From: Branchiostoma floridae
Lineage: Eukaryota; Chordata; Leptocardii; Amphioxiformes; Branchiostomatidae
Reading direction: 5' to 3'
Length of the DNA: 64,000 bases
NCBI RefSeq assembly: GCF_000003815.2
Contig: NC_049981.1
Location: 28,070,131 to 28,134,130, forward strand
Positions 20,011-49,200 of this stretch are shown here, piece after piece. A program made the position numbers and the translations under genes. The notes under the pieces were generated by a model, which saw only the letters and a list, made by a program, of their open reading frames with translations, was not told where the DNA came from and ran no database searches. Within the stretch, counting starts at the first letter, position 1. Every line of letters begins with the position of its first letter.

Positions 20011-20754
20011 ATGGGTATACTTTGGTCAAAAGTGAAGGAGAGTCGCGAAAGGAAGAAGGTGCTAAGCAAAGTAGGACCCACGACACATTTTGCGAGGCAC
20101 GAAGCTGAGTACTGGATGAAGATTTTCTACCAGGATGTCCCGAACGGGAAACTCTCTGAGGCTGAATTCGTGGAGTACTTCGGAAACTTTTACACGTCCG
20201 CAGATGACGGGAGTAAAACTACTCTCGCCAGGCAAATTTTTAAAGCGTTTGACAGAAACAACAACGGTCATGTGAGTCTGAGGGAATACCTCCATGGGAT
20301 GAGTACTCTGTTGAGAGGGAACACGTTAGAAAAGTTGGAGTGGGCTTTTATTTTGTTCGACGTGGATGGGGACGGCTTGGTGAGCAAGGAGGACATGGGA
20401 GGAGTGCTGATGGTATGAGCAGTTTCATAAGTTTCATAATCATTTGGCTAAAACATTTCTTCAAAGAGGCTCTCTTTTTTCGATTACTGAGTTTACTGAA
20501 AAATATCACGTAACATTCACGCTATCTTGAATGACGATGAATATCTTTCTAACGACGAATATCACACTTTTCAGCTGTATAACGATCTTCGCACCAACAA
20601 AGAAGGCGGAATCAGTGAGGAACAGCTCGCAGCAATCATCGATCACGAATTTCCTCTGATCGACCGTACTGGAAAGGGCAGGCTCGGGAAGAGACAGTTT
20701 ATAGAGGGTGTCAGTAGGAGTCATCGCCTGTTAGAGATTATGCCAATCAGATAA
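20011..20754 (+). CDS. Neuronal-calcium-sensor-like EF-hand protein, two exons, 193 aa
   Basis: Calcium-sensor of the recoverin/visinin/NCS group. Exon 1 is 20011-20412 (134 codons), ending ATG|GTATGAG. Exon 2 starts after TTTTCAG at 20575 and runs to TAA at 20754; the join is phase 0. The product is 193 residues, the usual NCS length. M-G2-I-L-W-S6 is an N-myristoylation signal, so membrane attachment is likely. EF1 (about 40-53, DVPNGKLSEAEF) is degenerate as in NCS proteins, with V in place of the usual C of the CPxG motif. EF2 (D81-R-N-N-N-G..E92) and EF3 (D117-V-D-G-D-G..D128) keep ligand residues and should bind calcium. EF4 (D164-R-T-G-K-G..Q175) lacks the final acidic residue and carries K at a ligand position, so it is probably inactive. 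Subfamily (VSNL, frequenin, GCAP or a divergent paralog) cannot be fixed by eye. A broken copy of exon 1 lies at 16198. Confidence 0.92.
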
Positions 20755-24531: not shown

Positions 24532-27500
24532 TTACCGGAGTTCTTTCAGCTCGATATGGACGTGTTCGTTGATCCTTGGCGTGTGTGTGGGCCTGGGTGT
24601 GCGGGAGGCGGCGAGCAGCAGCGGCGTGTGGCCGGGGTTGGTGGCGTTACGGTAGGACTCCCGCAGGTTGTTGTTCAGAGCGCCGTACACCACGGGGTTG
24701 ACGCAGGTGTTGGCCAGCGCCATCCACATCGCCACGGGGTAGACGTAGTGGTGCATGCTCTCACGCTGGCTCCACGACAGGAAGCCGAAGTCTTCCAACA
24801 GCGCGCAGACGTGGAGCGGCAGCCAGGACAGCCCGAAGATGACGGTAGTGGCTGCCAGGATCTTCACCGCCCGCAGTCTGTTGGGCGACGGGTTCCTGCT
24901 CTTGACTGGCGGGCGGATCCAGATGTTCATGACGATGACGTAGTTGAGCAGGGCGTTGGCGATGAGGGGTAAGGCGTAGCAGGTGATGAGCTTGAAGCAG
25001 GTGTAGACGCGGCGTAGCGTGTCGGCCGGCCAGTACTGGGCACAGATGTGCTGACCGCCGTACACTTCGCTGCGGTGCACCATGGCTATAGGCATGTTGA
25101 TGAACACAGCCACGACCCAGATGGACATGATGGCACGGGTGGCCGTCCTGATGGAGATCTTCTCCTCCGTCGGGTAGACAACCAGGTAGTATCTGCAAAG
25201 CAAAAAGAATACACAGGTCAGTTTCGTGACGTAGCCTTAGTCAGTGTCCACGTGTCAGTCGCGCCCCCATGCGGTTACGGTTGGAAGTACATTTAATTTA
25301 CCTTCGGGTATTCTTTGTGGGGGCATTGAGTGCAATAGTACCTCGCACAAAGAGAAAGGAAATATGTAAAACCATTTTCTACGGTAATATGGGTCCCACA
25401 AATTCTTGCTGAGCCGCTTTGAGCGCGATTTCGTAAGCCTATGCTTTACCTACTACATGTATAGGACTGTTCAGCCACAGTCGGCGCTTTCGGACTGATA
25501 TCAATTAGAATTTTACCATGGTCAATATAGACCGAAGGAGGCCATGCACACGCCTTTTAAAAAAGGTCCCATATGCACGAGAGTTAGTTCTTCACCCAGC
25601 CTTAACATCAATCACCTTCCGATACACTCACGGTGCTCTACAGTTGTACATCCTTTCCCTAGTAGATAAAGCAATTCAGCGTAAGTGTTGATGTATTAAG
25701 TGGCTATGTCGGAGGACTATTAATCTCTGACAACTCACACAAAATGTGCGATATATCGGTATATCTCAAACCTAGTGATGAAAAAGATTGATCCATTGAT
25801 GGAAAATGATTTGTGCTAAAATTGAATACAGCTTGCTATTGAGGAGTTTATAATTGCTGGGTACAGCTGCGGGAGTCTGCGTACAGGTCGTTATGGAAAC
25901 GCCATCATTAACAGGGCGAGTGCTGTTGTGTTCCTGAGATAGATCTCAAGAGGCTAGGCTCTGCAGTAATGAGTTGTAATACCAGCACCCCAGGCTATCG
26001 TGTTTCTGTCACATCGAAATGATGCCACATAATTGGCTCTGATAAACCCAGTTCCGATCTATCTTGGAGATATCAGCAAAAGATTGATTTTTCCTTTGGT
26101 AATCGCCAAGACGCTGTTTTCAAGAAAGTGTTGAGTGCACCCCACTGTGCGTGCTAACTCCATCAGACGGTGGCATATAGATACTTCAGAGACTCCTTGA
26201 TTATACATATTGCCTCTTGCTGTTTCCATTGCACACATAATTAGAATCGTTATCATCAAAGTTGCGACCATCTCACTGACTGCCTAGGACACGTGCGTAT
26301 ACGTGGCCTACCACACGGTATCGTAAGAAGTATCTCATTGAAGCTTCGGCACGTTGATGGCATCTCAACGAATTCTATCGTGATTAAAAACGGGTCTTTT
26401 TACCCTTTGTATGCTTTGTTGTTTTCATATTGTCATACAATTTGTATGATGTGACATTCCACGCTTCTACATTGGTTTTGTGCGTAACACAAATCCAGCG
26501 ACGCCGCCGACGCACCGCACAGATGCCCCCCTTAAGGATCACAAACCACTGTCCTACCAGAGCTTGGTAAACCACAACTCCGAGCTAACGTAACGTCAGC
26601 TAGCGTGCTTGATATGTAATCCACCAACGTACCTTTATGATATTAATAGTTTCATTTCGTATAAACACCGTCTGTTTCACATTAGGAACACAGTCGTACT
26701 TGCACAGGTACTCACCGCTCGAAGGCAATGGCGGTGACCGTGAAGATGGAGGTACAGACGAGGATTCCTCTCAGGAAGGGAACCAGCTTACACAGGGCGT
26801 CTCCGAACATGTCCTCTGTAGATGAATGGAGGAATACAGATTTAATTAGCACTCCGAAATGACGTGTCGTATAAGGTCATGTTCACTGATATAGAAATAT
26901 TCTGTCTATAGTCTCAAAACATTGTGCCGGAAAAACATCGTCTGCAGTAAACAAAGCTCTGAAGCAACCTTGTCCAAACATCCAACATATTCAACGGAGA
27001 CTATCCTGAATTTTATTGCATTTTGTATTGTATACTGGTCAAGGGTGAAAAAGTGTCTATTCATTGTCTATTCATTGCCAGCCAGGCTCATCTTCCGAAG
27101 TTCCATCTTGCGTGTTCAAATTTTCGCTGTTCTTGGACAGTACTGGTTCAATCGTATGTAACAATGTCGCACCCTCATGTAATACGGCTTAGGATAATGG
27201 TTTGAAAATAAAGTATAAATTGTAGTACGTACTGTACAAGTAGATTTTACTTACCAACATATATGTAGGTGACGAGTGTAAAAGGGAGGTTGACGAGTCC
27301 CAGCACAAGGTCTCCAGTCGCCAGGTTCATGATGAAGAAGTTGGTGACGACACCTCTAGCTTTGGGCGTCCTGAGGATCATGTAGAGCACGCTGGTGTTC
27401 CCGCACACGCAAAGGACAAAGATGGCGGCGTACATCAGGATGTAGATGACCATGACGACTGTGGACTGCTTGTAGGACGAGTGGACGGCGGCGAAGTCTC

Positions 27501-27636
27501 CATAGTCAGACTGTACATATCCAGCCTCTTCTTCGCTGAAGTTCATCAGGCTGCCCACGCCAGCAGGCAGCACCAGCGACGCCAACAGATCCGCCATGTC
27601 GGTAGAGTTCTCTACAGTTGCCTCCACAGCACCCAT
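24532..27636 (-). CDS. Complete rhodopsin-class neuropeptide GPCR, three exons, 380 aa
   Basis: Seven-transmembrane peptide receptor. Exon 1 is 27636-27255 (127 codons + 1 base, donor GTAAGT). Exon 2 is 26815-26716 (acceptor CTACAG, donor GTGAGT). Exon 3 is 25192-24532 (acceptor TTTGCAG, stop TAA). Both introns (439 and 1523 bp) keep frame. The N-terminus has glycosylation sites N10-S-T and N32-F-S. Landmarks: TM1 with C-G-N80; TM2 with L-A-T-G-D109; C136 opening TM3, pairing with the loop-2 cysteine of GGQHIC; E160-R161-Y at the end of TM3, split by intron 2 inside the Arg codon; TM6 SWLPLH, a CWxP variant; TM7 NPVVY. A basic loop KSRNPSPNRLR precedes TM6. The tail of about 45 residues has no cysteine palmitoylation site after helix 8. 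CKLVPF, ERYY and NPVVYGALNNNLRE fit NPFF/QRFP/RFamide-type receptors; the exact ligand is unknown. The introns hold no other gene. Translation starts at the ATG at 27636, with no upstream in-frame ATG seen. Confidence 0.92.
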
Positions 27637-27651
27637 GACTTTTGACAAAGG

Positions 27652-32344: not shown

Positions 32345-32680
32345 CGTAGGGATATCAAACCATCAACAAAAGTCGCATGGCGGCTAACGGCGCAGCGAAG
32401 ATACTAGCGCTATAAATAAGCGCTGCAACTAAGGATGGCAACCCGTACAATATTTTTGTATACTGTTGAGCTAAATAAAGTTTGTTGTTTATGAGGTTTT
32501 AGTTGTCTTTGAAGCTTTGACCCGAAATATTTTAAAGTCAAACTGCTGAAGAGAAGTAAGTGACTGCTACGATTATCGTAGATATGGCCCTAAAAAAAAA
32601 CTGATAAAAGAAGCCTTCTCAATAGTCTAAAATGCAAGAGCTTCCGGGGGGGGGGGGGGGCTTCGCCCACCTGGGTCCCC
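32345..32680 (+). repeat. Y repeat, left copy, ending in a G-run
   Basis: Same word order as 33110-33405: AAACCATCAACAAAAGTCGC, GCTAACGGCGCAGCGAA, GAAGAGAAGTAAGTGACTGC, GATTATCGTAGATATG and AATAGTCTAAAATGC. It ends at a poly-G run at about 32646-32660 and then a GC-rich tract to 32770. Confidence 0.7.
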
Positions 32681-32804
32681 CCCACAGTGGCCCTGCCCCT
32701 GGACCCCGCCAGGGACATTCGGCGGCCCCCGGACCCCTGTCCGACGCTTTGCAAAAATCCTGGCGAGAAGTCTGTACGGCCTGAGTCTTCAAGTTAACGT
32801 ATTG

Positions 32805-33095
32805 TGTGGTCCCGCTTATGAATATTAATTAGCCTTCGCTTTCCTCTTCGCTGATTGGCTGAACCATTAATTGAATTAACTCTTCCTGCCGGCTAGACGC
32901 AGGTGCAGATGTCGGCTCTGTGGGGTGAACGTCCGAAAGGTCATGGCATGGAGAACGAAAGAAAACCAATTTCCCCCCAAAAAAGTGCTGTAATTAAGCC
33001 TTTTACAGTACTTTATGCCAAAAATTTCACTTGGATCATTTTACCAACTATCTTATGCCTATCTATACCAAATGTTACTCATACCAGGGTACAGG
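32805..33095 (+). repeat. X repeat, left copy (no tandem expansion)
   Basis: Starts CCCGCTTATGAATATTAATT and includes CTCTTCGCTGATTGGCTGAA and GGTCATGGCATGGAG. It then has the TATGCCTATCTATACCAAAT and TACCAGGGTACAGGGG words. The right copy at 40120 has the same order. It lacks the 163-bp units that fill the right copy. Confidence 0.75.
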
Positions 33096-33109
33096 GGTGC
33101 AAAATATAC

Positions 33110-33405
33110 CGTTATAAGACCGTCAACAACAGTCGCACGGAGCTAACAGCGCAGCGAAAATACCATCGCTAGCGTTTCAACTTCGGATAACAAGTTATAA
33201 GTACTGTTGAACTCAGTAACGTTAAAGTTTGTTTTTAGTTGCCTTTGACGGTTTGACCTGAAATAGTGTTACGCTAAACTCCTGAAGAGAAGTTAAGTGA
33301 CTGCTGCGATTATCATACATATGCCCCTAAGAACTGATACAATATAAAGCCTTCTGAATAGTCTAAAATGCGAGAGCCTTAGGCGGGCTTCGCTCCCCCT
33401 GGCGG
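33110..33405 (+). repeat. Y repeat, right copy
   Basis: Diverged direct copy of 32345-32680, with matching words GACCGTCAACAACAGTCGCA, AACAGCGCAGCGAAAATACC, GAAGAGAAGTTAAGTGACTG and GAATAGTCTAAAATGCGAGA. It ends immediately before the inverted terminus of the large element at 33414. Confidence 0.7.
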
Positions 33406-33671
33406 GAACACTGCTATCTTCACTGTGCGCTCATTGGTTGATCCTGAATCACATGATTCTCACAACCATATAAGTACAAGGGATGATCACCCTACTGCCT
33501 CTTGTTGGATTCATCCGCAACGCCGAGGTCGCCTGGCGATGGGCGACCAGGTCTCCGCCGCTTGCGGTTTCACGACCACGTTTCTCGCCGCCGGGCGGGT
33601 TTTGTGTCCGAGGAGCACGCAGTGTTGCAGCCTAGACTCCGGATTACCAGTGGGAGGAAGACAACTTCGGA

Positions 33672-35010
33672 GGTTCGGCTGTGCAGCAAGTAACGGCGGG
33701 GCGAGGGATCCAGAAGCTCCGGCGGACCTTGGGCAGACCCTCTCCACGCATCGAAAGGACGGAAGAGCCCTAGTGTTCTACCTAGTGGGGTCAAATTTCA
33801 GGACGGTGGATATACGGCAGGTTTGGGTGGAAAATGCGGTAACATACGTTGTGGTATTTGTCGAATTCTGCTTTTCTGGGAACAATGGTTTGTGTGCCGT
33901 TTTGTTCACGTGTTGTTTTGCATATCTTTGGTGTCGAGCTTTCGCCTGGTTTGCACGTGCTTGATTTGCATTTGTTTGCTTTTAGTTGACTGGGTATTTT
34001 GTCGATAAGCACACAGGGAGGCAGCATAGACTCCAGTTTGACGGAGGAAGACAATTTCTGAGGTTCAGCTGTGCAGCAAGTAACGGCGGGGCGATGGAGC
34101 CAGAAGCTCCGGCAGACCTTGGGCAGACCATCTCCACGTAGCGAAAGGACGGACGAGTCCCACATAGTGGGGGGAAAACTTCAGGATGGCTGAGATATGG
34201 CAGGTTTGGGTGGAAAATGCGGTAACGTACGTTGTTGTATGTGTCGAATTCTGTTTTTCTGGGACACTCGTTTGGGGTGTCGTTGTTCACGTGTTGTTTT
34301 GCATATCTTTGGTGTCGGGTTTTCTCCCGGTTTTTACTGTTTGATTTGCATTTGTTTGCCTTAGTTGACTGGGTGGGAATTTCATTATCTTTTGTTTGGA
34401 ACGGAACGTAGGAGGTTTTGTTCTTAGGAAGGGAGGGAAACTCGTGACAGGATCCCCTTTTGTGACCACGTGAGGTGTGTGCCAGCGTGGCGGGTGAATG
34501 CTCGAGTTGGGTTTAGCTGCTTTACTGTAGGTTCAGAATTTGTGGTCTGAACGTGTTGTTTTCTTAGCAGCTCAGCCCGGATTCCAGCTCTCCCAGGCCG
34601 AGGAAGGCGACTACCACAGCGCGACTGAGATGCAGCAAGCTCTGACAGACTTTTGGCGGCCTCTTCACATATTGAAAGGGCGGAAGAGTCCTACCTGGCG
34701 GGTCGAAACGTCGGATGTTAAAGATACGGCAGGTTTGGGGCGAAAATGCGGTAACAAACGTTTGTGTTTTTTGTCCAATTATGTTTTCCTGGGAACAATG
34801 GTTTGGGGTGGTTGATGTGTACACGTGTTGTTTTGCATATCTTTGGTGTCGGGCTTTCGCTCGGTTCGCTCGTGCTTGATTTGTATTTGCTTTGTCTTTA
34901 GTTGATACTTGTGTTCTAAACGTGTTGTTTTCTTAGCAGATCAGCCCGGTTTCCAGCTCTCCTGTGCCGAGGAAGGTGACTACCACATCGCGACCGAGGT
35001 GCAGCAAGCT
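33672..35010 (+). repeat. Four degenerate tandem units inside the large element
   Basis: Units of about 370-540 bp share CTGTGCAGCAAGTAACGGCG (or GATGCAGCAAGC), GACCTTGGGCAGACC, GGCAGGTTTGGGTGGAAAAT, GCGGTAACRTACGTTG and GTTTTGCATATCTTTGGTGT. They start near 33672, 34061, 34570 and 34930; the fourth is partial. Units 3 and 4 have CTTAGCAG before a short frame reading QPGFQLSxAEEGDYHxAT, which is intriguing but too short to call coding. Confidence 0.7.
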
Positions 35011-35544
35011 GCGACAGAGCGTTGGAGCCAGCAAGCCGAGCATTCTCAACACATACGGCAGTTCTTCGCGGCATCGACACTAGACGACAGCCGTCATGGA
35101 GCGCACGGCTTTGGTTTTTTCAGGGAGGCGTGCACGTTTTTGGTGACATCGATTTGAGGCGGGATTCCCCTCAGATATTTTGTCTTTATGTCTGTTGTTG
35201 CTGTTTTGAAGTGTTTGGTTTCCCTCTAATTAGGGATATTTTCTTTTACCGTTGTTGTTTGTAAAGTTTTGCTTGTGTTGACACAGTGACGGCGACACAG
35301 ACCTGGACTATTAAGGAATGCAGTCGTCTAAGGAACCACAGCCTGGCAGCAGCGTTGGCAGTTTCTATCGCTGAGGGGAGTCTCCTTAAATCACGAGGAA
35401 AGAAGGTGTGTTTTGGTCCGTTTTGTACTATATTTTGGAGAAAACAGCGCATGTACGGATCGTTCTCGGTCGCTCCTGCTTGGTGTTTGATGGTTCTTTT
35501 ATACCGTGAGAACACCGAGTAGCGAGGTCCGGAGAGGTTTCGTG

Positions 35545-38440
35545 TTGGCGTGTTTTCTTTTCAGCTGGTGAAACGGCGCGCATGTGCGGGCCTCTGATCG
35601 TTTGTGCTTGGTGTTTGGTGCACTGTTAGTGTGCGATCACTGAGTAACGTTGATCAGAGAGTTTTTCCGCGCATGGCGGGTGTTTTCATGGGGGTGAAAC
35701 GGCGCGCATGTGCGGGCCTCCGATCGTTGGTGCTTGGTGTTTGATGCACTGTTAGGGTGCGATCACTGAGTAGCGTTGATCGGAGAGTCTTTCCGCACAT
35801 GGCGGGTGTTTTCACAGAAATGAAACGGCGCGCATGTGCGGGCTTCTGATTGTGCTCGGTGTTTGCTGCACTGTTCGTGTGCGATCACTGAGTAGCGTTG
35901 ATCAGAGAGTCTTTCCGCACATGGCGGGTGTTTTCATAGCCATAGGAATGGAACGGCGCGCATGTGCGGGCCTCTGATGGTTGGTGCTCGGTGTTTGCTG
36001 CACTGTTTGTGTGCAATCACTGAGTAGCGTTGATCAGAGAGTCTTTCCGCACATGGCGGGTGTTTTCATAGCCATAGGAATGGAACGGCGCGCATGTGCG
36101 GGCTTCTGATCGTTGGTGCACGGTGTTTGTTGTCACTGTTAGTGTGCGATCACTGAGTAGCGTTGATCAGAGAGTCTTTCCGCACATGGCGGGTGTTTTC
36201 ACAGGAATGAAACGACGTGCATGTGCGGGCTTCTGATTGTACTCGGTGTTGGCTGCACAGTTAGTGTGCGATCACTGAGTAGCGTTGATCGGAGAGTCTT
36301 TCCGCACATGGCGGGTGTTTTCACAGAAATGAAACGGTGCGCATGTGCGGGCTTCTGATTGTGCTCGGTGTTTGTTGCACTGTTAGTGTGCGATCACTGA
36401 GTAGCGTTGATCAGAGAGTCTTTCCGCACATGGCGGGTGTTTTCATAGCCATAGGAATGGAACGGCGCGCAGGTGCGGGCCTCTGATGGTTGGTGCTCGG
36501 TGTTTGCTGCACTGTTAGTGTGCAATCACTGAGTAGTGTTGATCGGAGAGTCTTTCCGCACATGGCGGGTGTTTTCACAGAAATGAAACGACGTGCATGT
36601 GCGGGCTTCTGATCGTAGGTGCCCGGTGTTTGTTGCACTGTTAGTGTGCGATCACTGAGTAGCGTTGATCAGAGAGTTTTTCCGCACATGGTGGGTGTTT
36701 TCACAGGAATGAAACGACGTGCATGTGCGGGCTTCTGATTGTACTCGGTGTTGGCTGCACAGTTAGGGTGCGATCATTGAGTAGCGTTGATCGGAGAGTC
36801 TTTTCGCACATGGCGGGGGTTTTCACAGAAATGAAACGGTGCGCATGTGCGGGCTTCTGATTGTGCTCGGTGTTTGTTGCACTGTTACTGTGTGCGATCA
36901 CTGAGTAGCGTTGATCGGAGAGTCTTTCCGCATATGGCGGCTGTTTTCACAGGAATGAAGCGACGCGCAGGTGCGAGCCTCTAATTGTTGGTGCTCGGTG
37001 TTTGCTGCACTGTTAGGGTGCGATCACTGAGTAGCGTTGATCAGAGAGTCTTTCCGCACATGGCGGGTGTTTTCACAGGAATGAAATGGCGTGTATGTGC
37101 GGGCTTCCGATTGTGCTTGGTGTTTGCTGCACTGTTAGTGTGCGATCACTGAGTAGCGTTGATCAGAGAGTCTTTCCGCACATTGTGGGTGTTTTCACAG
37201 GAATGAAATGGCGTGTAGGTGCGGGCTTCTGATTGTGCTTGGTGTTTGCTGCACTGTTAGTGTGCGATCACTGAGTAGCGTTGATCAGAGAGTCTTTCCG
37301 CACATTGTGGGTGTTTTCACAGGAATGAAATGGCGTGTAGGTGCGGGCTTCTGATTGTGCTTGGTGTTTGCTGCACTGTTAGTGTGCGATCACTGAGTAG
37401 CGTGGATCAGAGAGTCTTTCCGCACATTGTGGGTGTTTTCACAGGAATGAAATGGCGTGTATGTGCGGGCTTCCGATTGTGCTTGGTGTTTGTTGCACTG
37501 TTAGTGTGCGATCAATGAGTAAAGTTGGTCAGAGTCTTTCAGCGCATGCCGGGTGTTTTCATAGGGGTGAAATGGCGCGCATGGGCGGGCCTCTGGTCAT
37601 TTGTGCTCGGGGTTTGTTGCACTGTTAGGGTGCGATTACTGAGTAGCGTTGATCAGAGAGTTTTCCCGCGAATGGCAGGTGTGTTCATAGGGAAAAAAGG
37701 GCATGCAGGTGGCAGGTGAGGGCCTCTGATCGTTTGTGCTTGGTGTTTCTTGCACTGTTAGTGTGCGATCACTGAGTAGCGGTGCCGTTGGTCAGAGAGT
37801 ATTTCCGCACTTGGCGGGTGTTTTGACAAGAAGAAAAGGGAACGCATGTTTGGGCCGCTGATCGGCTGTGCTCGGTGTTTGCTGCATGGTTAGTGTGAGT
37901 TCACTGAGTGGCGTTGTTCAGAGAGTCTTTCCGCACGTGGCGGGTGTTTCCAGAGTCCGGAAAGAAAATGGCACGCATGTGCGGGCCACGGATTGTTTGT
38001 GCTTGGTGTTTGCTGCTCTGTTAGTATGCGATCATTGAGTAGCGTTGATCAGAGAGTTTTTCCGCGCATGACGGGTGTTTCATAGGAAGAAGATGTCATG
38101 CGAGTTTCTAGATCTGGTCGTTTGTGCTTGGTATTGGCTGCACGGTTGATAGTGTGCAATTGCTGAGTAGCGTTGGTCAGAGAGTCTGATCGCACACGGC
38201 GGGTGTTTTCACAGGGAGAAAATGGTACGCGTGTGCGGGCTGCTGATGGTGCTGGGCGTTGGCTGCATTGTTAGTGGGTACTTAGTGGGACTCATAGGAG
38301 TAGCGTGAGTCAGAGAGTCTGCGTCCTTTGCACATAGCGGGCGTTTTCACAGAAAGGAAATGGCGCGCATGTGTGGGTTTCTGGTCGTTCGTGCGTCGTG
38401 TTTGCTGCACTCAGTGTTAGTGTGCGATCACTGCGTGACT
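35545..38440. repeat. 122-bp minisatellite, about 23 copies
   Basis: The anchor GTGCGATCACTGAGTAGCG recurs at about 35631, 35757, 35879, 36011, 36144, 36266, 36388, 36520 and onward to about 38421. Spacing is mostly 122 bp; some units are 132-133 bp owing to a TAGCCATAGGAATGG-type insertion. Each unit also contains TCTTTCCGCACATGGCGGGT and GCGCGCATGTGCGGGC. Units in the centre (36900-37500) are most alike; both ends are degenerate. Short frames on either strand are by-products. Confidence 0.95.
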
Positions 38441-38865
38441 AGTGGCGGTCAGGGAGCCTCTAATCGCGTATGATGGGAGTTTCATGCTCGGAAACGGCAC
38501 TCGTGTATTGGGGTCCAGTGGTTTGGGCTGGGATGTTTGTGGTCACTCTAAAGTGGTTAAAGACGGGGTACCGGTGAATAAAGAATCTTTGTACATGGTG
38601 CGTTTGCATCCTGGCGAAGGAATCAGCGCGCATGTGCGGGCCTCTAGTTATTCGTGCCTGGTGGTTGCTGGCACTGTGAGGGTGCAAAACTGAGTTTGGT
38701 GGCAGAGTGTCGCCCTGCAGAGGACGGTTGTTCATGGCGAGAAAATGGCAGGTTTTGCTCGTTTCGGAAGAATGAATGTGAGAGTATATGTCAGATGAGA
38801 TATCTTGACGGACAAGGGGGAAATTCTTTGATTACTTCGACGGTTTTGAGGCCAGTGAAATGAGG

Positions 38866-39434
38866 GAATATGAATGAATGAAAGACCTTTATTGTACATT
38901 CATGCCTCGACGGGCTAGGTACAGGTCACTGATAACAGGCATGACTGATAACAGAATAACAAACATATGAAAAAAACAACAGGATACAATTTAACTAGTT
39001 GAAGGTACTAAGCTAACAGGATGGTCGACATCTTCTCGCTTCTTTGTACAGGTGTAGATATAAGAACATATAATGTTTGATATACAGGGTTTGTCTAGGC
39101 GCATCAAAAATAGAAATTTATCCGTTGCATTAAGATGTTCAAAATATGGGAACTCTTTTCTGATATATTCATAAAGCACAATCCGTTCATTATGGTACAA
39201 TTTACAGTGTAAAATAAAATGCTGTTCATCTTCTACATGTTGTAGATCACAAAATTGGCAGACTCTATGCTGCAGAGGGGTGCGGTTGTGCCTTCCAGTT
39301 TCGATATGTAACTTGTGGCAACTAATCCGGAGTTTAGTGATAGCTACTCTGTGCTGTATGTTTTTCACCATCAGATATTCTTCTTCTTTATAAATAGTCT
39401 TGAATAATCTATAGGTTCGTAATTTGTTACCGAA
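38866..39434 (-). mobile_element. 5'-truncated LINE with zinc-knuckle C-terminus
   Basis: The minus-strand frame from about 39434 to the TAA at 38991 reads NKLRTYRLFKTIYKEEEYL, then ITKLRISCHKLHIETGRH and the zinc-knuckle C-Q-F-C-(14)-H-F-I-L-H-C. LYHNER and a hydrophobic tail follow. This is the end of an ORF2 protein of the CR1/L2-like LINE group. The 3'UTR continues to about 38876, containing AATAAAGG, and ends in an (ATTC)n tail. The reverse transcriptase and endonuclease are missing. Inserted within the large element. A second 3' end of the family lies at 30409. Confidence 0.8.
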
Positions 39435-39759
39435 AGAAAGAAAGAAAGAGTGGACGCCTTTCGAGTTTTATTAGAATGGGTGAAAGGGGTAAGATAAGAG
39501 AGGGTGTTTGAAGTTACGTGAGAAGGTGAGGTAGAGAGAAAATGGAGAATAAGGGAGGGGGTAAGAGATGTGAAATGTTGAAGTAGAGAGAACTTCAATG
39601 ATAAGGAAGGGGGTAAAGTATAGGAGTTAGAGAATGTGTAGATTTATGAAGTAACAAGTTAGCATGGGGATAAGGTGAAGGTAAGCGACTTCGGCGCTAT
39701 CCCCATAACTTAATCACATATGAAGGATGATCCAATGAGTGCGCAGTGTGGATAGGAAA

Positions 39760-40106
39760 CTATCTTCACTGTGCGCTCATTGGTTGATCCTGAATCACAT
39801 GATTCTCACAACCATATAAGTACAAGGGATGATCACCCTACTGCCTCTTGTTGGATTCATCCGCAACGCCGAGGAGCGCGTGGTGAGGTCGACCCAGGAA
39901 GTAACAGCTGGAGGGAGATTTGATGGGAAACAGGGTTTTCCCGAGGAGGGGATTTGTCAGAAACCGACCCACCCACCCACCCTCCTTTATATTCGTGTAC
40001 AGCTGGCAAGGGTTCCGTCTTCGCCGCGCGACTTCGGCGCTATCCCCATAACTTAATCACATATGAAGGATGATCCAATGAGTGCGCAGTGTGGATAGGA
40101 AACTAT
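39760..40106. mobile_element. 347-bp element with the same ends (A2...B2)
   Basis: Shares its first 115 bp exactly with the left end of the large element and its last 79 bp exactly with that element's right end. The 153-bp middle (39875-40027) has no match I can see to the body of the large element. The ends are imperfect inverted repeats. It overlaps the preceding B1 by CTAT (39760-39763). It reads either as a short deletion derivative inserted next to its relative, or as the right-hand A2-B2 part of a split-direct-repeat retroelement. Confidence 0.7.
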
Positions 40107-40119
40107 ATGCGGGATCATG

Positions 40120-41490
40120 AGGCCCCGCTTATGAATATTAATTAGCCTTTGGCCTCCTCTTCGCTGATTGGCTAGGTCTTTGATTCAATTAACTCTCCGG
40201 CTAACGCGCACAGGTGTGGCTCTGTGCGGGGTCACGGAAGGTCACGTCAGGAGGCCAAAAGAAAACAAATTTCCCCTCAGAAAAGTGCCAAAATTAATCA
40301 TTTTAAAGTTGTTTATGTCAAAAATTTTACTTGAATCTTGTTACCAAGTATCTAATGCCTATCTATACCAAATTTCAGGTCATTTAATTGTAATACCAGG
40401 GTACAGGAGCCAAAAGTGTCCTTTTTTGGTCAAAAATTGGCCAAAAATCGCAAAAATAAGCATTTTGTTACACTGTACACCAAAAGTGTTATTGAATTTA
40501 TATGAAGGGATTATCAAGGCACATCTGTGTCAAATTTCAGCTCATTCGGTTGCAATACCAAGGTACAGGAGCCAAAAGTGTCCTTTTTTGGTCAAAAATT
40601 GGTCAAAAAATCGCAAAAAAAAAGCATTTTGTTGTACTGTACACCAAAAGTGTTATTGAATTTATATGGGGGCATTATCAAGGCACATTTCTGTCAAATT
40701 TCAGCTCATTTGGTTGTAATACCAGGGAACAGGGGCCAAAAGTGTCCTTTTTTGGTCAAAAATTGGTCAAAAAATCGCAAAAATAAACATTTTGTTGTAC
40801 TGTACACCAAAAGTGTTATTGAATTTATATGAAGGGATTATCAAGGCACATCTGTGTCAAATTTCAGCTCATTCGGTTGCAATACCAAGGTACAGGAGCC
40901 AAAAGTGTCCTTTTTTGGTCAAAAATTGGTCAAAAAATCGCAAAAAAAAGCATTTTGTTGTACTGTACACCAAAAGTGTTATTGAATTTATATGGGGGCA
41001 TTATCAAGGCACATTTCTGTCAAATTTCAGCTCATTTGGTTGTAATACCAGGGAACAGGGGCCAAAAGTGTCCTTTTTTGGTCAAAAATTGGTCAAAAAA
41101 TCGCAAAAATAAACATTTTGTTGTACTGTACACCAAAAGTGTTATCGAATTTATATGGGGGCATTATCAAGGCACATCTCTGTCAAATTTCAGCTCATTT
41201 GGTTGTAATACCAGGGTACAGGGGCCAAAATATACAGTTTTGGTCTAAAATTGACCAAAAAATCTCAATAAAATCATTTTAGAGGCAGATATGAAAAAAC
41301 TGAGAAAAATGCATCAAGGTATTGGCCCATTCTACCCCTGTGCCAAATTTCAGATCATTCGGTCCAGGAACGGCGGAGATGAATCACTTTGAAGATTTGA
41401 CAGGAGAAAGAAGAAGAAGAAGAAAGAAAGAAAGAAGAAACATTACGAATACAATATATTTCACCATACTATGTATGGCTGAAATATAAT
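40120..41490 (+). repeat. X repeat, right copy, with internal tandem array and (AAG)n tail
   Basis: Starts CCCCGCTTATGAATATTAAT like the left copy at 32805. Between its TACCAGGGTACAGG word and its end lies the 163-bp array. It closes with a CAAATTTCAGATCATTCGGT block, then GAAGATTTGACAGGAG, an (AAG)/(AAAG) tract at 41407-41435 and ATACAATATATTTCACC. The purine tail suggests a retroposed, non-autonomous element. The 94-163-codon frames within it are by-products of the repeats. Confidence 0.65.
40405..41235 (+). repeat. 163-bp tandem array with 327-bp higher-order period
   Basis: CCAAAAGTGTCC words occur at about 40410, 40572, 40736, 40899 and 41062, and a variant at 41225, giving a 162-164 bp period. 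Alternate units match better than neighbours: those with GGGATTATCAAGGCACATCT alternate with those with GGGGCATTATCAAGGC. A 327-bp dimer (40502-40828) is repeated almost exactly at 40829-41155. Confidence 0.92.
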
Positions 41491-45822: not shown

Positions 45823-46225
45823 CTGTTTGTTACCACCGGCTCTATGTACGGCTGTTTGTTACCACAGGCTCTATGTACGGCTGTTTGTTACCACCGGCTC
45901 TATGTACGGTTGGTTGTTACCACAGGCTCTATGTACGGCTGTTTGTTACCACTGGCTCTATGTACGGCTGTTTGTTACCACCGGCTCTATGTACGACTGT
46001 TTGTTACCACCGGCTCTATGTACGTCTGTTTGTTACCACCGGCTCTATGTACGGCTGTTTGTTACCACCGGCTCTATGTACGACTGTTTGTTACCACCGG
46101 CTCTATGTACGGCTGTTTGTTACCACCGGCTCTATGTACGGCTATTGTTACCACAGGCTCTATGTACGGCTGTTTGTTACCACAGGCTCTATGTACGGCT
46201 GTTTGTTACCACCGGCTCTATGTAC
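45823..46225. repeat. 29-bp minisatellite, 14 copies
   Basis: The word GGCTCTATGTAC occurs 14 times from 45838 to 46214 with a 29-bp step, except one 28-bp unit (46128-46155, one base lost). The rest of the unit is GGCTGTTTGTTACCACC with a few variants. No forward frame contains a stop, so all three frames stay open across the array. None has a credible start or splice context, and I do not call a protein. Confidence 0.97.
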
Positions 46226-49200
46226 GTGTGCCTCCTGTACAATTTGATTTGCAGTTTTCATTAACTCGTGAAGACGCCATCATCACCATCGAGTAGGCTC
46301 TAGAGATGTTTTTACAACTTTCCATTCCAGACCGGCATGTTTTCAATCGACGCCATACAAATCTTCCGACTGCATTTTAAGGCGTTATGTGTCCTATCTC
46401 CTGTAGTCACGGGGGATAATTTCAATATTGCCCGTAATCAACTCTGTAAATCCAAGCAATATACAGACAGAACGTAGGTTGGGCTTACCGGACCCATCTT
46501 ATTGAAAACTTGAGTTACTCAACCAAGCAGCACGAAGTTGGATACGTTTCTCGACACACTAAAAGGATTCTTTTAGATGATAGCAAGGTTGCCTTACTGA
46601 TATTACAGGCTATATGGGGATAACGTACGTGACCTTGTCTATTCCAATGATACATGCGGACCATCGTCATACGGTCGTTCACCTACGCTCGTAAGTATGA
46701 GCAAGGAGAAATCAGCTATCTACATACCAGAAACCCCGATGATCCGTCAACCCCTTCGTGAGCTACTGTTTTCTAAAGTCTGGAACAAAATCGACTCCTG
46801 CAGTTCCGAAAGCCGCTACGGAGGCCGAATCTACACTACTTGCACCCTGCCCGCGACCATATCATGTTTAAAACAAATGATCTCAAAACCAAACGTTATG
46901 CTGGAGTACCGTAGAAAGCCGCTAAGGCTTCTATCAATCTTGTCCATTTTCCCACCCCCTACCTAGTCCCCACCAGGGTGACTACGGGGAATAGTTGAAT
47001 AATTTGCCAGGGGAGTTTTGCTACCAAAGGATCTAAATTGCCATCCAGGAGAGGGGGTGTCAAGTCAGTGTGAACTGACTCTCCTGGCCAATTATTTGCC
47101 GATTTGTTTTGGACATATTATATTAACCTTAGCCCCTTAGGATTAGAAATGCCGGTTGAAGGCAAACTTGACAAACATGAAGGTACTTTGGAGCTCATAG
47201 AATATTATGCTGATAAACTCTTGCATATTCGCTAACCTACGACCTGACATGGGTGGTTCCATGTTTACAATATACATTGTTGAATATAAAACATGCCTGA
47301 AGAATAACATGGAGAAATGCCATTATCCACAAATAATCCTATAATATGGGAATGCTCTCCACGAATACACCTATGGACATGAACAGCATGACAGGAATCC
47401 TATTTCAAAACCTTCTCTCTTTTTTTAATGACTTTCCATGACTCGCATACGGGTATGAGTTCTCCTGACGCATACGAATGATATAGATATACGAAACCGT
47501 GCAAAAGCACCGGTAGAACACCTCGGTTTTTATTATCCTTTAAATGAAAAAAAAAAATATGGCTCGGTTTTAACCGAACCAAGACAACTTTGTCAACACG
47601 TTATTATGATACATCCACTGACAGATCACGAGCACACATACATAGGCGTTGTAGTTCTACCGAATATGACCATTTCTGAAGCAGTTTTACAAGCCTCGGC
47701 GATTATCAAACGTACTAACAGCTGTCTACAACATCTGCCAGTCGAGGATACGTAACTTTGTGTCAGGTCTGGAAGATTAACCTTATGTAATGCAATATGC
47801 GTTAAGTGCACACCAGCTTGACGCCTTCAGACTAGTGTCTGAAATGTGATCATCTTCAGCTACACGGCCGGTAGGCCCAGACTTCAAGCCACACAGCATG
47901 GAATAATGCAGCTATTTGATTTGATAACATGTATTCAAGAAAAAATTACAGCATTGATATTTTTTTATATATGTTCGGAACAGCAGAGGGAAAACAGATA
48001 AACATGATATAATGAAAGGTAGAGAGGTTCGTACGTACCACCCCACAAGCCGTTATGACAATGTTCTCCCTCAGCAATGCCAGCAGCGTTCGGTGCAAAG
48101 CTTCATATGTCAGAAGATATCTGACATCGACATGTCAATGAGGAGCGATAGTCCCAAACCCCGCCCCCTCTCGACTTGCCGAGCTGCTATTGGCCGAGAA
48201 GGCACGCCGTGAACGGAGAAAGGCATACATGTACATGTATCTTCTCTGGCTCTTCCGTTGACGTTATAGTCACATGGGATATCTCTCTTGTCAATCTGTT
48301 GCTATGGTAGTTTCTCCGTAATATAAACACAATCTAAGTAGCTTTTACAAAGTATACATTTATCATGCATGTTAATCGAGTGTTCTGATTATGTCTATAC
48401 AGAATAGAACGGAATGGTGGAAAGGTATGCCGTCTGTTGTAAAACCCAGCATAACATCCAAATAATAACGATCAAAATGGGAGAGGCTTCGGACAACGAT
48501 CATGCGAATTGAATGCGAGAGACTACGGTAGGGTTTACCGGGATAAATGGTGAACATATATAAATGACCTGACAGAGTGAAACAAATATGCTGACTGGAG
48601 GCGCTCAGTCGTAAGAACGACGACCATTTCAGTACAACTGTGATCAGGATGCTCCATCTTCTGACAGGGAACACAAGTTGCATGAATACTTTTTTGATGA
48701 CTTGGAGTTATGCGTATACATATCTCTGTTAAGATAAGGTCAGGGCATATATCATTTTGAACTGAAAGCTCATCTGTACCGTTGGAAAGGATTGATATAC
48801 CGATTGCTGACGTCAAGGAGCCGTACGATCTCGTGACTTGCATAACCCTAAGGAGAGAGGAACAGCCGAAAACTCTTTGTCTTGTTAAAACACCATTGAG
48901 CTGCTTACATGAAATTTTTTACATGAATGATTTGAATTAGTTTTTAGATCTATTCTTTGCAACTCTAACACTTATGGAAAAGAGTTACGAAAACCTTTGA
49001 TGACCTAAGCATCGTGGCTATGGACAGATTTTTCCACAGAAAATGCTAAACACAATTTATAAGGCATAAAACAACCTTTGTTAAAGGGTAGAAAAGAGCT
49101 AATTCCAAACGCATTCTAACCGCATCCCTGTCATCGAGCACCTTGGTACTTATTACCATCCGGTCTGCTTGGTGAACAGGTTTGTTAGTTGTGGTAACGT

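What the first reader, a model, noticed from the sequence alone, without database searches (positions are those of the whole stretch)
33414..40106. A1-body-B1-A2-B2 architecture: possible split-direct-repeat (DIRS/Ngaro-like) non-autonomous element
A1 (33414-33528) and A2 (39760-39874) are identical over 115 bp. B1 (39685-39763) and B2 (40028-40106) are identical over 79 bp. B1 abuts and slightly overlaps A2. The A and B ends are also imperfect inverted repeats of each other. Established knowledge: Ngaro/PAT-type tyrosine-recombinase retroelements have A1...B1-A2-B2 split direct repeats, and DIRS has inverted ends. Here 153 bp separate A2 from B2, and no recombinase or RT is visible. So it may instead be a long TIR element next to a short deletion derivative. 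Perfect identity of the ends implies recent activity or gene conversion.
Basis: partly seen in the sequence, partly recalled or inferred. Interest (0 to 1): 0.72.

Follow-up and report, generated by a model that had tools for sequence, protein, structure and literature searches.

The report
Gene-less split-repeat mobile element family
The repeats mark one copy of a gene-less mobile element that recurs in this genome and is laid out like a rare class of retrotransposon that inserts with a recombinase instead of the usual integrase, so it probably borrows the enzymes of gene-bearing relatives that have the same end layout.

Summary
The unit A1-body-B1-A2-C-B2 recurs: 11 of 20 fetched loci plus the window hold A1 and all or part of A2-C-B2; 13 genomic sites carry the B1|A2 junction. 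So these are not two chance neighbours. None of 13 copies with both flanks shows a target-site duplication. Insertions are mostly at CT|RTT, like the B1|A2 junction GGAAACT|ATC, as tyrosine-recombinase (YR) elements do, not TIR transposons. The body is non-coding: repeated modules and a 122-bp array of 18-24 units. Solo A-C-B copies exist. ALOG-type YR elements of the same genome (36 ALOG sites; 14 with ALOG and YR in one open frame) share the layout: three near-identical 7.5-kb copies have A1 upstream and B1-A2-C-B2 downstream. Two A1s closer to the window's (81-83%) have ALOG 7.5 and 13.2 kb downstream, but with a stop inside and not read through. Best reading: non-autonomous split-direct-repeat YR retroelement (DIRS order). 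RNA intermediate, circle and helper are inferred.

The parts
33416..40104 (+). whole element, ATCTTCACTG...GGATAGGAAACT, flanked by ...CACTGCT and ATATGCGG; no target-site duplication
   Evidence: ends fixed by comparing 26 left and 17 right flanks; no direct repeat beyond mispaired flanks
33414..33528 (+). A1: left terminal repeat with inverted CCAAT (ATTGG) and TATA-like CATATAAGTA; identical to A2
33597..34905 (+). non-coding body, diverged modules in three copies (77-83% alike)
   Evidence: ORF 33425-33964 matches no Pfam family at E 0.1
35569..38433 (+). tandem array, 122-bp unit, 22.6 copies in the window
   Evidence: 18 to 24 units in the six arrays without N inside
38871..39435 (-). 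later insertion in the window copy, with a CR1/L2-like RT-tail ORF (38991-39371 minus; family name recalled); borders approximate
   Evidence: absent from L010, L014, L018 at the same place; zf-RVT E 0.0028, below cut-off
39441..39684 (+). purine-rich stretch (74% purine) just before B1, a possible polypurine tract
   Evidence: a 74% purine stretch also precedes B1 in the C16 ALOG-YR element, but the two are not alike in sequence (106 of 300 shuffles as good)
39685..39763 (+). B1: internal copy of the right terminal repeat
39732..39783 (+). B1|A2 junction ...GGATAGGAAACT|ATCTTCAC...: right end joined to left end; 24-4-24 imperfect palindrome (20/24) around GAAA, inner 12-bp arms 10/12; circle-junction-like
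39760..39874 (+). A2: internal copy of the left terminal repeat, with the same TATA-like box
39875..40027 (+). C: spacer between A2 and B2, with ACCCACCCACCC pyrimidine tract
   Evidence: 95-99% identical in fetched copies
40028..40104 (+). B2: right terminal repeat (AT at 40105-40106 is flank)

Best explanation
The interval is one copy of a non-autonomous tyrosine-recombinase (YR) retroelement with split direct repeats, A1-body-B1-A2-C-B2. Proposed cycle: transcription starts after the TATA-like box in A1, so the RNA lacks the start of A1 and probably the very end of B2; the internal B1|A2 junction carries both missing ends and serves as template to restore them; reverse transcription yields a circle whose junction is GGAAACT|ATC; a YR recombines that junction with a CT|RTT target, leaving no target-site duplication. 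The enzymes must come in trans, most plausibly from ALOG-type YR elements of the same genome. Shown: repeat layout, recurrence as a unit, absence of target-site duplication, target motif, non-coding body, solo forms, and YR-coding elements with the same layout. Inferred: transcription start, RNA intermediate, circle, trans-mobilisation, and which element supplies the enzymes.
For: Unit recurs: 11 of 20 fetched loci plus the window hold A1 and all or part of A2-C-B2 (L014 lacks B2, L015 and L016 lack the start of A2, each at a run of N); the B1|A2 junction pattern occurs at 13 sites against 0 for the reversed pattern. No target-site duplication in 13 copies (11 composite, 2 solo): summed direct-repeat length 15 against 15.7 for mispaired flanks. 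Target: T at -1 in 26/26, C at -2 in 21/26; on the right R 14/17, T 14/17, T 12/17. Copies are young: pi 0.25-1.7% in the seven segments tested (n 9 to 31), most variable sites singletons. 36 ALOG sites, 14 of which share one stop-free frame length with an adjoining PF00589 match (lists compared by eye). L064, downstream of such a frame on C16, shows B1-A2-C-B2 with B1=B2 but for a 2-base gap at the edge, a TATA box in A2 and a junction with 17-bp inverted arms (16/17) around 9 bp, 0 of 1000 shuffles; A1 of that family lies 7.5 kb upstream of the B2 end in three copies. Two A1s nearer to the window's (81% and 83%) have ALOG on the same strand 7.5 kb (C362) and 13.2 kb (C6) downstream.
Against: No direct evidence of an RNA intermediate or a circle. 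The three C16/C17/C6 ALOG-YR copies have an A unlike the window's (191 of 300 shuffles as good); B (5 of 300) and C (4 of 300) are only weakly alike, so they need not be the helper. The two ALOG frames downstream of window-like A1s each hold one stop, have no PF00589 match (C362 has a 3.1-kb N run there), and are linked by distance and strand alone; the C362 A2-C-B2 is a solo copy, so the 91% similar B there is not shown to belong to the ALOG element. No PF00589 match lies within 50 kb of a listed A/B site (compared by eye). The window palindrome is modest (8 of 1000 shuffles as good). Published forms are written with A2 next to B2; here C separates them. Empty-site and methylase searches did not complete; RT genes were not searched.
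Confidence: 0.85

Rival explanations
1. Two TIR DNA transposons side by side (a 5-6 kb element and a 347-bp deletion derivative) that later moved as a dimer.
For: A and B are imperfect inverted repeats; CTAT borders all three ends in the window copy; solo A-C-B copies exist, L024 and L025 read in full.
Against: No target-site duplication in 13 of 13 copies, composite or solo; the three CTATs are explained by junction plus target preference; no transposase family hit among the ORFs sent to Pfam; YR elements of the same genome have the same plan, C included.
Confidence: 0.05
2. Helitron/Helentron-type rolling-circle element: subterminal inverted repeats, minisatellite body, head-to-tail tandem, no target-site duplication.
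For: No target-site duplication; tandem array in the body; precise head-to-tail joint.
Against: Right end is AACT followed by A, G, T or C; Helitron end rules (5' TC, 3' CTRR, insertion A|T or T|T) are recalled and not met; the same A1...B1-A2-C-B2 plan is found on YR-coding elements.
Confidence: 0.04
3. YR DNA transposon derivative (Crypton-like): circle excision and insertion by a YR without any RNA step.
For: Junction, target motif and lack of target-site duplication need only a YR; RT was not looked for in this genome's ALOG elements.
Against: Published ALOG-YR elements carry RT/RNase H (PMC3537659, passages); internal copies of both ends make sense as templates for reverse transcription; that Cryptons lack such a block is recalled.
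Confidence: 0.06

Closest known systems
ALOG-type DIRS1-like retroposons (Iyer and Aravind 2012, PMC3537659, passages)
   Same: This genome holds them; three near-identical copies have the A1...B1-A2-C-B2 plan with promoter-like A and pyrimidine tract in C; two A1s 81-83% like the window family's have an ALOG domain downstream.
   Different: The window element has none of their genes; its A differs in sequence from the C16/C17/C6 copies. The passages give terminal direct repeats of 159 bp for the Ectocarpus element and no split repeats.
VIPER/SIRE of trypanosomes (PMC6681497, passages)
   Same: VIPER has A1 at 5' and B1, A2, B2 at 3'; SIRE is A2 plus a ~30-bp own segment plus B2, as the solo A-C-B copies are here.
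   Different: VIPER codes for proteins; here the long form is non-coding, C is 153 bp and the body carries a tandem array.
Ngaro / PAT-like elements (PMC8547959 and PMC4157794, passages)
   Same: A1-[body]-B1A2B2; isolated AB repeats likened to solo LTRs.
   Different: Written as B1A2B2 with no spacer, and coding; PAT has a methyltransferase and Ngaro lacks it, not tested here.
Ngaro-like element near the VCBP2/5 genes of amphioxus (PMC2632668, passages)
   Same: Reports coding YR retroelements and relics in Branchiostoma floridae, with a split-direct-repeat arrangement called distinct.
   Different: Coding (gag, RT/RNase, YR); its repeat layout is in a supplement that I did not see, so identity with the layout here is open.
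DIRS1 (PMC3266345, passages)
   Same: Short circular junction identical to the target, no target-site duplication; ends partly inverted.
   Different: DIRS1 has inverted terminal repeats and internal complementary regions, not direct split repeats.

Membership tests
Split-direct-repeat YR retroelements (PAT/Ngaro/VIPER) | A1 at left end; B1, A2, B2 at right end, A1=A2 and B1=B2 | tested here: met
Split-direct-repeat YR retroelements (PAT/Ngaro/VIPER) | insertion without target-site duplication at a site like the circle junction | tested here: met
   empty sites not seen
Split-direct-repeat YR retroelements (PAT/Ngaro/VIPER) | A2 and B2 adjoining, as published schemes write it | tested here: not met
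   153-bp C between them; the YR-coding C16/C17/C6 elements also have a C and SIRE has ~30 bp, so I read this as a variant
Split-direct-repeat YR retroelements (PAT/Ngaro/VIPER) | encodes YR and RT/RNase H | tested here: not met
   no such ORF found (of the element's ORFs only 33425-33964 and 38991-39371 were scanned with Pfam, the shorter segments were only listed); hence called non-autonomous, 'works like' rather than autonomous member
Split-direct-repeat YR retroelements (PAT/Ngaro/VIPER) | moves through an RNA intermediate | not testable with these tools
   no transcript or circle data
ALOG-type DIRS retroposons | shares ends with an ALOG-YR coding element | tested here: inconclusive
   C362 and C6:27.19M A1s 81-83% similar with ALOG downstream on the same strand; not read through, frames hold a stop; their right ends not seen
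ALOG-type DIRS retroposons | inactive adenine methylase gene | not tested
   PF05869 search asked 13 times, never answered
TIR DNA transposon | fixed-length target-site duplication | tested here: not met
DIRS1-like proper | inverted terminal repeats with internal complementary region | tested here: not met
   A1/A2 and B1/B2 are direct; only the outer ~45 bp of A and B are mutually inverted

The most novel reading that the evidence does not exclude
A recently active two-part system: ALOG-type YR elements mobilise a gene-less element whose cargo is a 122-bp satellite array, so that each new copy seeds a satellite array of changed length elsewhere in the genome. This would make YR retroelements a vehicle for satellite DNA, and would show ALOG-type elements alive in an animal although the 2012 survey inferred the metazoan copies it saw to be inactive.
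Probability: 0.4. Interest if true: 0.75.

Novelty: new variant of a known kind. Interest (0 to 1): 0.6.

Why it matters
Non-autonomous YR retroelements look little described in the library searched: 'split direct repeats' together with 'non-autonomous' gave 4 papers, of which I read passages of one, where SIRE is the example, and saw three as listings only; the papers found other than PMC6681497 were also seen as listings only. Many young copies with clean flanks make the insertion chemistry of this poorly studied class directly readable: end points, target motif, junction palindrome and solo formation. The family also shows that the B1-A2 block with a spacer C is kept when the genes are absent, which points to what the process needs in cis. 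The open ALOG-YR frames bear on the origin of plant ALOG transcription factors.

Tried and rejected
TIR transposon with 4-bp (CTAT) or 8-bp (GAAACTAT) target-site duplication: both can be fitted to the window copy alone and I held them first; rejected when 13 copies with both flanks showed no duplication.

Deletion-derivative idea (C made from the body): C does not resemble the body beyond shuffles.

Coding body in L011 and others: the long open frames were runs of N (the output was cut in the middle, so not all its segments were seen).

Helitron and Crypton readings: see rivals. Rfam (0 matches) and tRNA gave nothing. The sigma-70 scan is meaningless for an animal. The papers search was spoilt by 'non-autonomous pat' matching 'pathway'; in its 20 listed papers of 91 the other five terms had 0 occurrences.

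C362 as a full split-repeat element: I first read its A2-C-B2 as belonging to the ALOG element (so noted in the notebook); one search showed no B1 before it and one search showed its left flank shared with the A1 copy (96%), so it is a solo copy in a duplicated stretch; only A1 and ALOG remain linked, by distance and strand.

Limits: the genome search scores only the best candidates (40 of 81, 56, 65, 66 and 82), so copy numbers are lower bounds; one search listed 100 of 144 sites; may be capped at its 100 candidates. Of the 21 loci, 19 hold runs of N (all but L026 and the window).
Full report
What is there. A and B are also imperfect inverted repeats of each other over their outer ~45 bases. 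Between A1 and B1 lie three diverged modules, a 122-bp tandem array of 22.6 copies, a purine-rich stretch and a ~565-bp later insertion. Of the two ORFs of the element scanned with Pfam, one has no hit and the other only the weak zf-RVT hit inside that insertion; the shorter stop-free segments were listed, not scanned.

It is one repeated unit. A genome search with A2-C-B2 gave 54 matches (81 candidates, 40 scored); with A1 plus 32 bases of body, 24 A1-type and 16 A2-type matches (56 candidates, 40 scored). I fetched 20 loci. In 11 of 20 (L009-L016, L018, L020, L022), and in the window, A1 and all or part of A2-C-B2 lie together; L014 lacks B2 and L015 and L016 the start of A2, each at a run of N. 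B1|A2 is visible in 13 of 20 (L009-L014, L017-L023) and hidden by N in L015 and L016. L024 and L025 are solo A-C-B. L026-L028 hold A1 and body without a right end in the stretch: L026 at a contig end, L027 at a run of N, L028 breaking off after 625 bases of body. The junction pattern with up to 3 mismatches occurs at 13 sites genome-wide, 0 for the reversed pattern; L020 is missed by it because of a 1-base deletion in A2. At C3:29228885 B is followed directly after AACT by unrelated sequence, with no A2, as B1 x B2 recombination would leave; its A1 was not seen.

How it inserts. Twenty-six distinct left flanks (24 A1-type, 2 solo) all end in T, 21 of 26 in CT; 17 right flanks begin with R in 14, then T in 14, then T in 12. 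Thirteen copies with both flanks, 11 composite and 2 solo, show no direct repeat beyond mispaired flanks (15 against 15.7). The internal junction GGAAACT|ATC is the right end joined to the left end, an imperfect palindrome around GAAA (10 of 12 inner arm bases; 8 of 1000 shuffles as good). This is the logic published for DIRS1: recombination of a short circular junction with an identical genomic sequence, without duplication (PMC3266345, passages).

Age. Diversity among copies, over hits covering at least 97% of the segment, is 0.25% (B), 0.65% (A), 0.70% (purine stretch), 1.15-1.24% (proximal body), 1.5% (distal body) and 1.7% (C), with most variable sites singletons. Of 10 copies with both A1 and A2, 7 have no difference between them, L010 and L018 one substitution each, L020 two substitutions and a 1-base deletion. 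L022 bears T98C in both A1 and A2, but L010 has it in A2 only, so homogenisation per copy is suggested, not shown. In the six arrays without N inside, unit counts by a core motif are 18, 18, 19, 21, 22, 24 (L014, L020, L015, L026, window, L022).

Coding relatives. PF00589 gives 97 matches (100 candidates, 100 scored); PF04852 gives 36 (42, 42 scored). Comparing the two lists by eye, 14 of 36 ALOG sites adjoin a YR match reported with the same stop-free frame length. L064, taken just after one such frame on C16, shows B1, A2 (inverted repeat of B, with CCAAT and TATAAA), a spacer with a CCCTCCCTCCCACCC tract, and B2. Searching with that block (82 candidates, 40 scored) found three near-identical tails on C16, C17 and C6 and, 7.5 kb upstream of their right ends and on the same strand, matching A1s. 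So YR-coding elements in this genome are built A1-...-ALOG-YR-B1-A2-C-B2. Their A is not alike in sequence to the window's (191 of 300 shuffles as good); B (5 of 300) and C (4 of 300) are weakly so, the purine stretches are not (106 of 300).

Nearer relatives. The end motif CTATCNNCACTGNGCNCTCATTGGNT with up to 3 mismatches has 144 sites against 2 for the reversed pattern (100 listed). On C362 there is an A1 at 167668 (minus) and, 7.5 kb downstream, an ORF with zinc ribbon and ALOG domain (PF04852 E 9e-8, above cut-off); on C6 an A1 at 27189059 (minus) with ALOG 13.2 kb downstream. Zinc ribbon, then ALOG, then YR is the published order (PMC3537659, passages). Both ALOG frames hold one stop and neither has a PF00589 match. 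The link is by distance and strand, across sequence not read. The C362 A2-C-B2 (74% like the window's as a whole, A 81%, B 91%) is a separate solo copy, so the right end of the ALOG element is unknown. Beyond these two, no PF00589 match lies within 50 kb of a listed A/B site (by eye).

Against and open. RNA intermediate, circle and helper identity are inferred. Published schemes write A2 next to B2; here C lies between. I treat this as a variant, because the YR-coding copies have it too and SIRE has about 30 bases there (PMC6681497, passages). Solo A-C-B copies resemble the isolated AB repeats of Ngaro (PMC8547959, passages). A Ngaro-like element with a 'distinct' split-repeat arrangement was reported from amphioxus in 2008 (PMC2632668, passages); I did not see its layout, so the coding form of this plan may already be in print. 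Empty-site and methylase searches did not complete; RT genes were not searched.

Verdict. Non-autonomous split-direct-repeat YR retroelement, a new variant of a known kind, with a satellite-bearing body. The 2012 survey inferred the metazoan ALOG elements it saw to be inactive; the stop-free ALOG-YR frames here are at odds with that, though activity was not tested.

Noticed in passing
G000 C16:4869816-4870823, C17, C7, C8 and others: 14 of 36 ALOG sites adjoin a tyrosine-recombinase match in a frame reported without stops, although a 2012 survey inferred metazoan copies to be inactive.
   Followed up: partly
L064:180-205: AATAAA followed within a few bases by a run of A, between the end of the YR frame and B1 of the C16 ALOG-YR element; looks like a fixed poly(A) tail.
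   Followed up: no
L060, L061, L062 (C200, C8): A-C-B remnants that share the same right flank at three places; in L061 and L062 the first ~83 bases of A are replaced by another sequence with a TATA-like box, so the insertion is older than a duplication and may serve as a gene start.
   Followed up: no
G000 C2:14488894 and C2:14489235: Two B-like end motifs 341 bases apart in one direction, as in B1-A2-C-B2: possibly a further diverged subfamily.
   Followed up: no
G000 C16:18267923 and C16:18277817: An A1 and a single B motif 9.9 kb apart on the minus strand with no second A or B listed between: possibly an A1-body-B form.
   Followed up: no
G000: 23 matches of ~420 bp (70-73%) starting at the A of the C16 ALOG-YR block, without B1: apparently a large set of solo A-C-B copies of related families.
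   Followed up: no
L009-L028 arrays: The spacing order at the 3' side of the 122-bp array (124,133,132,131,128) is shared by many copies while the inner part varies, so length changes happen inside the array.
   Followed up: partly
window 32353-33378 and 40118-40373: The element sits in a local repeat whose copies lie on both sides (73-79% alike).
   Followed up: partly
window 40369-41280 and 45823-46226: Tandem arrays of 163 bp (5.6 copies) and 29 bp (14 copies).
   Followed up: no
window 20011-20418 plus; 24532-25203 and 27247-27648 minus: Neuronal-calcium-sensor-like EF-hand ORF and rhodopsin-type GPCR exons.
   Followed up: no
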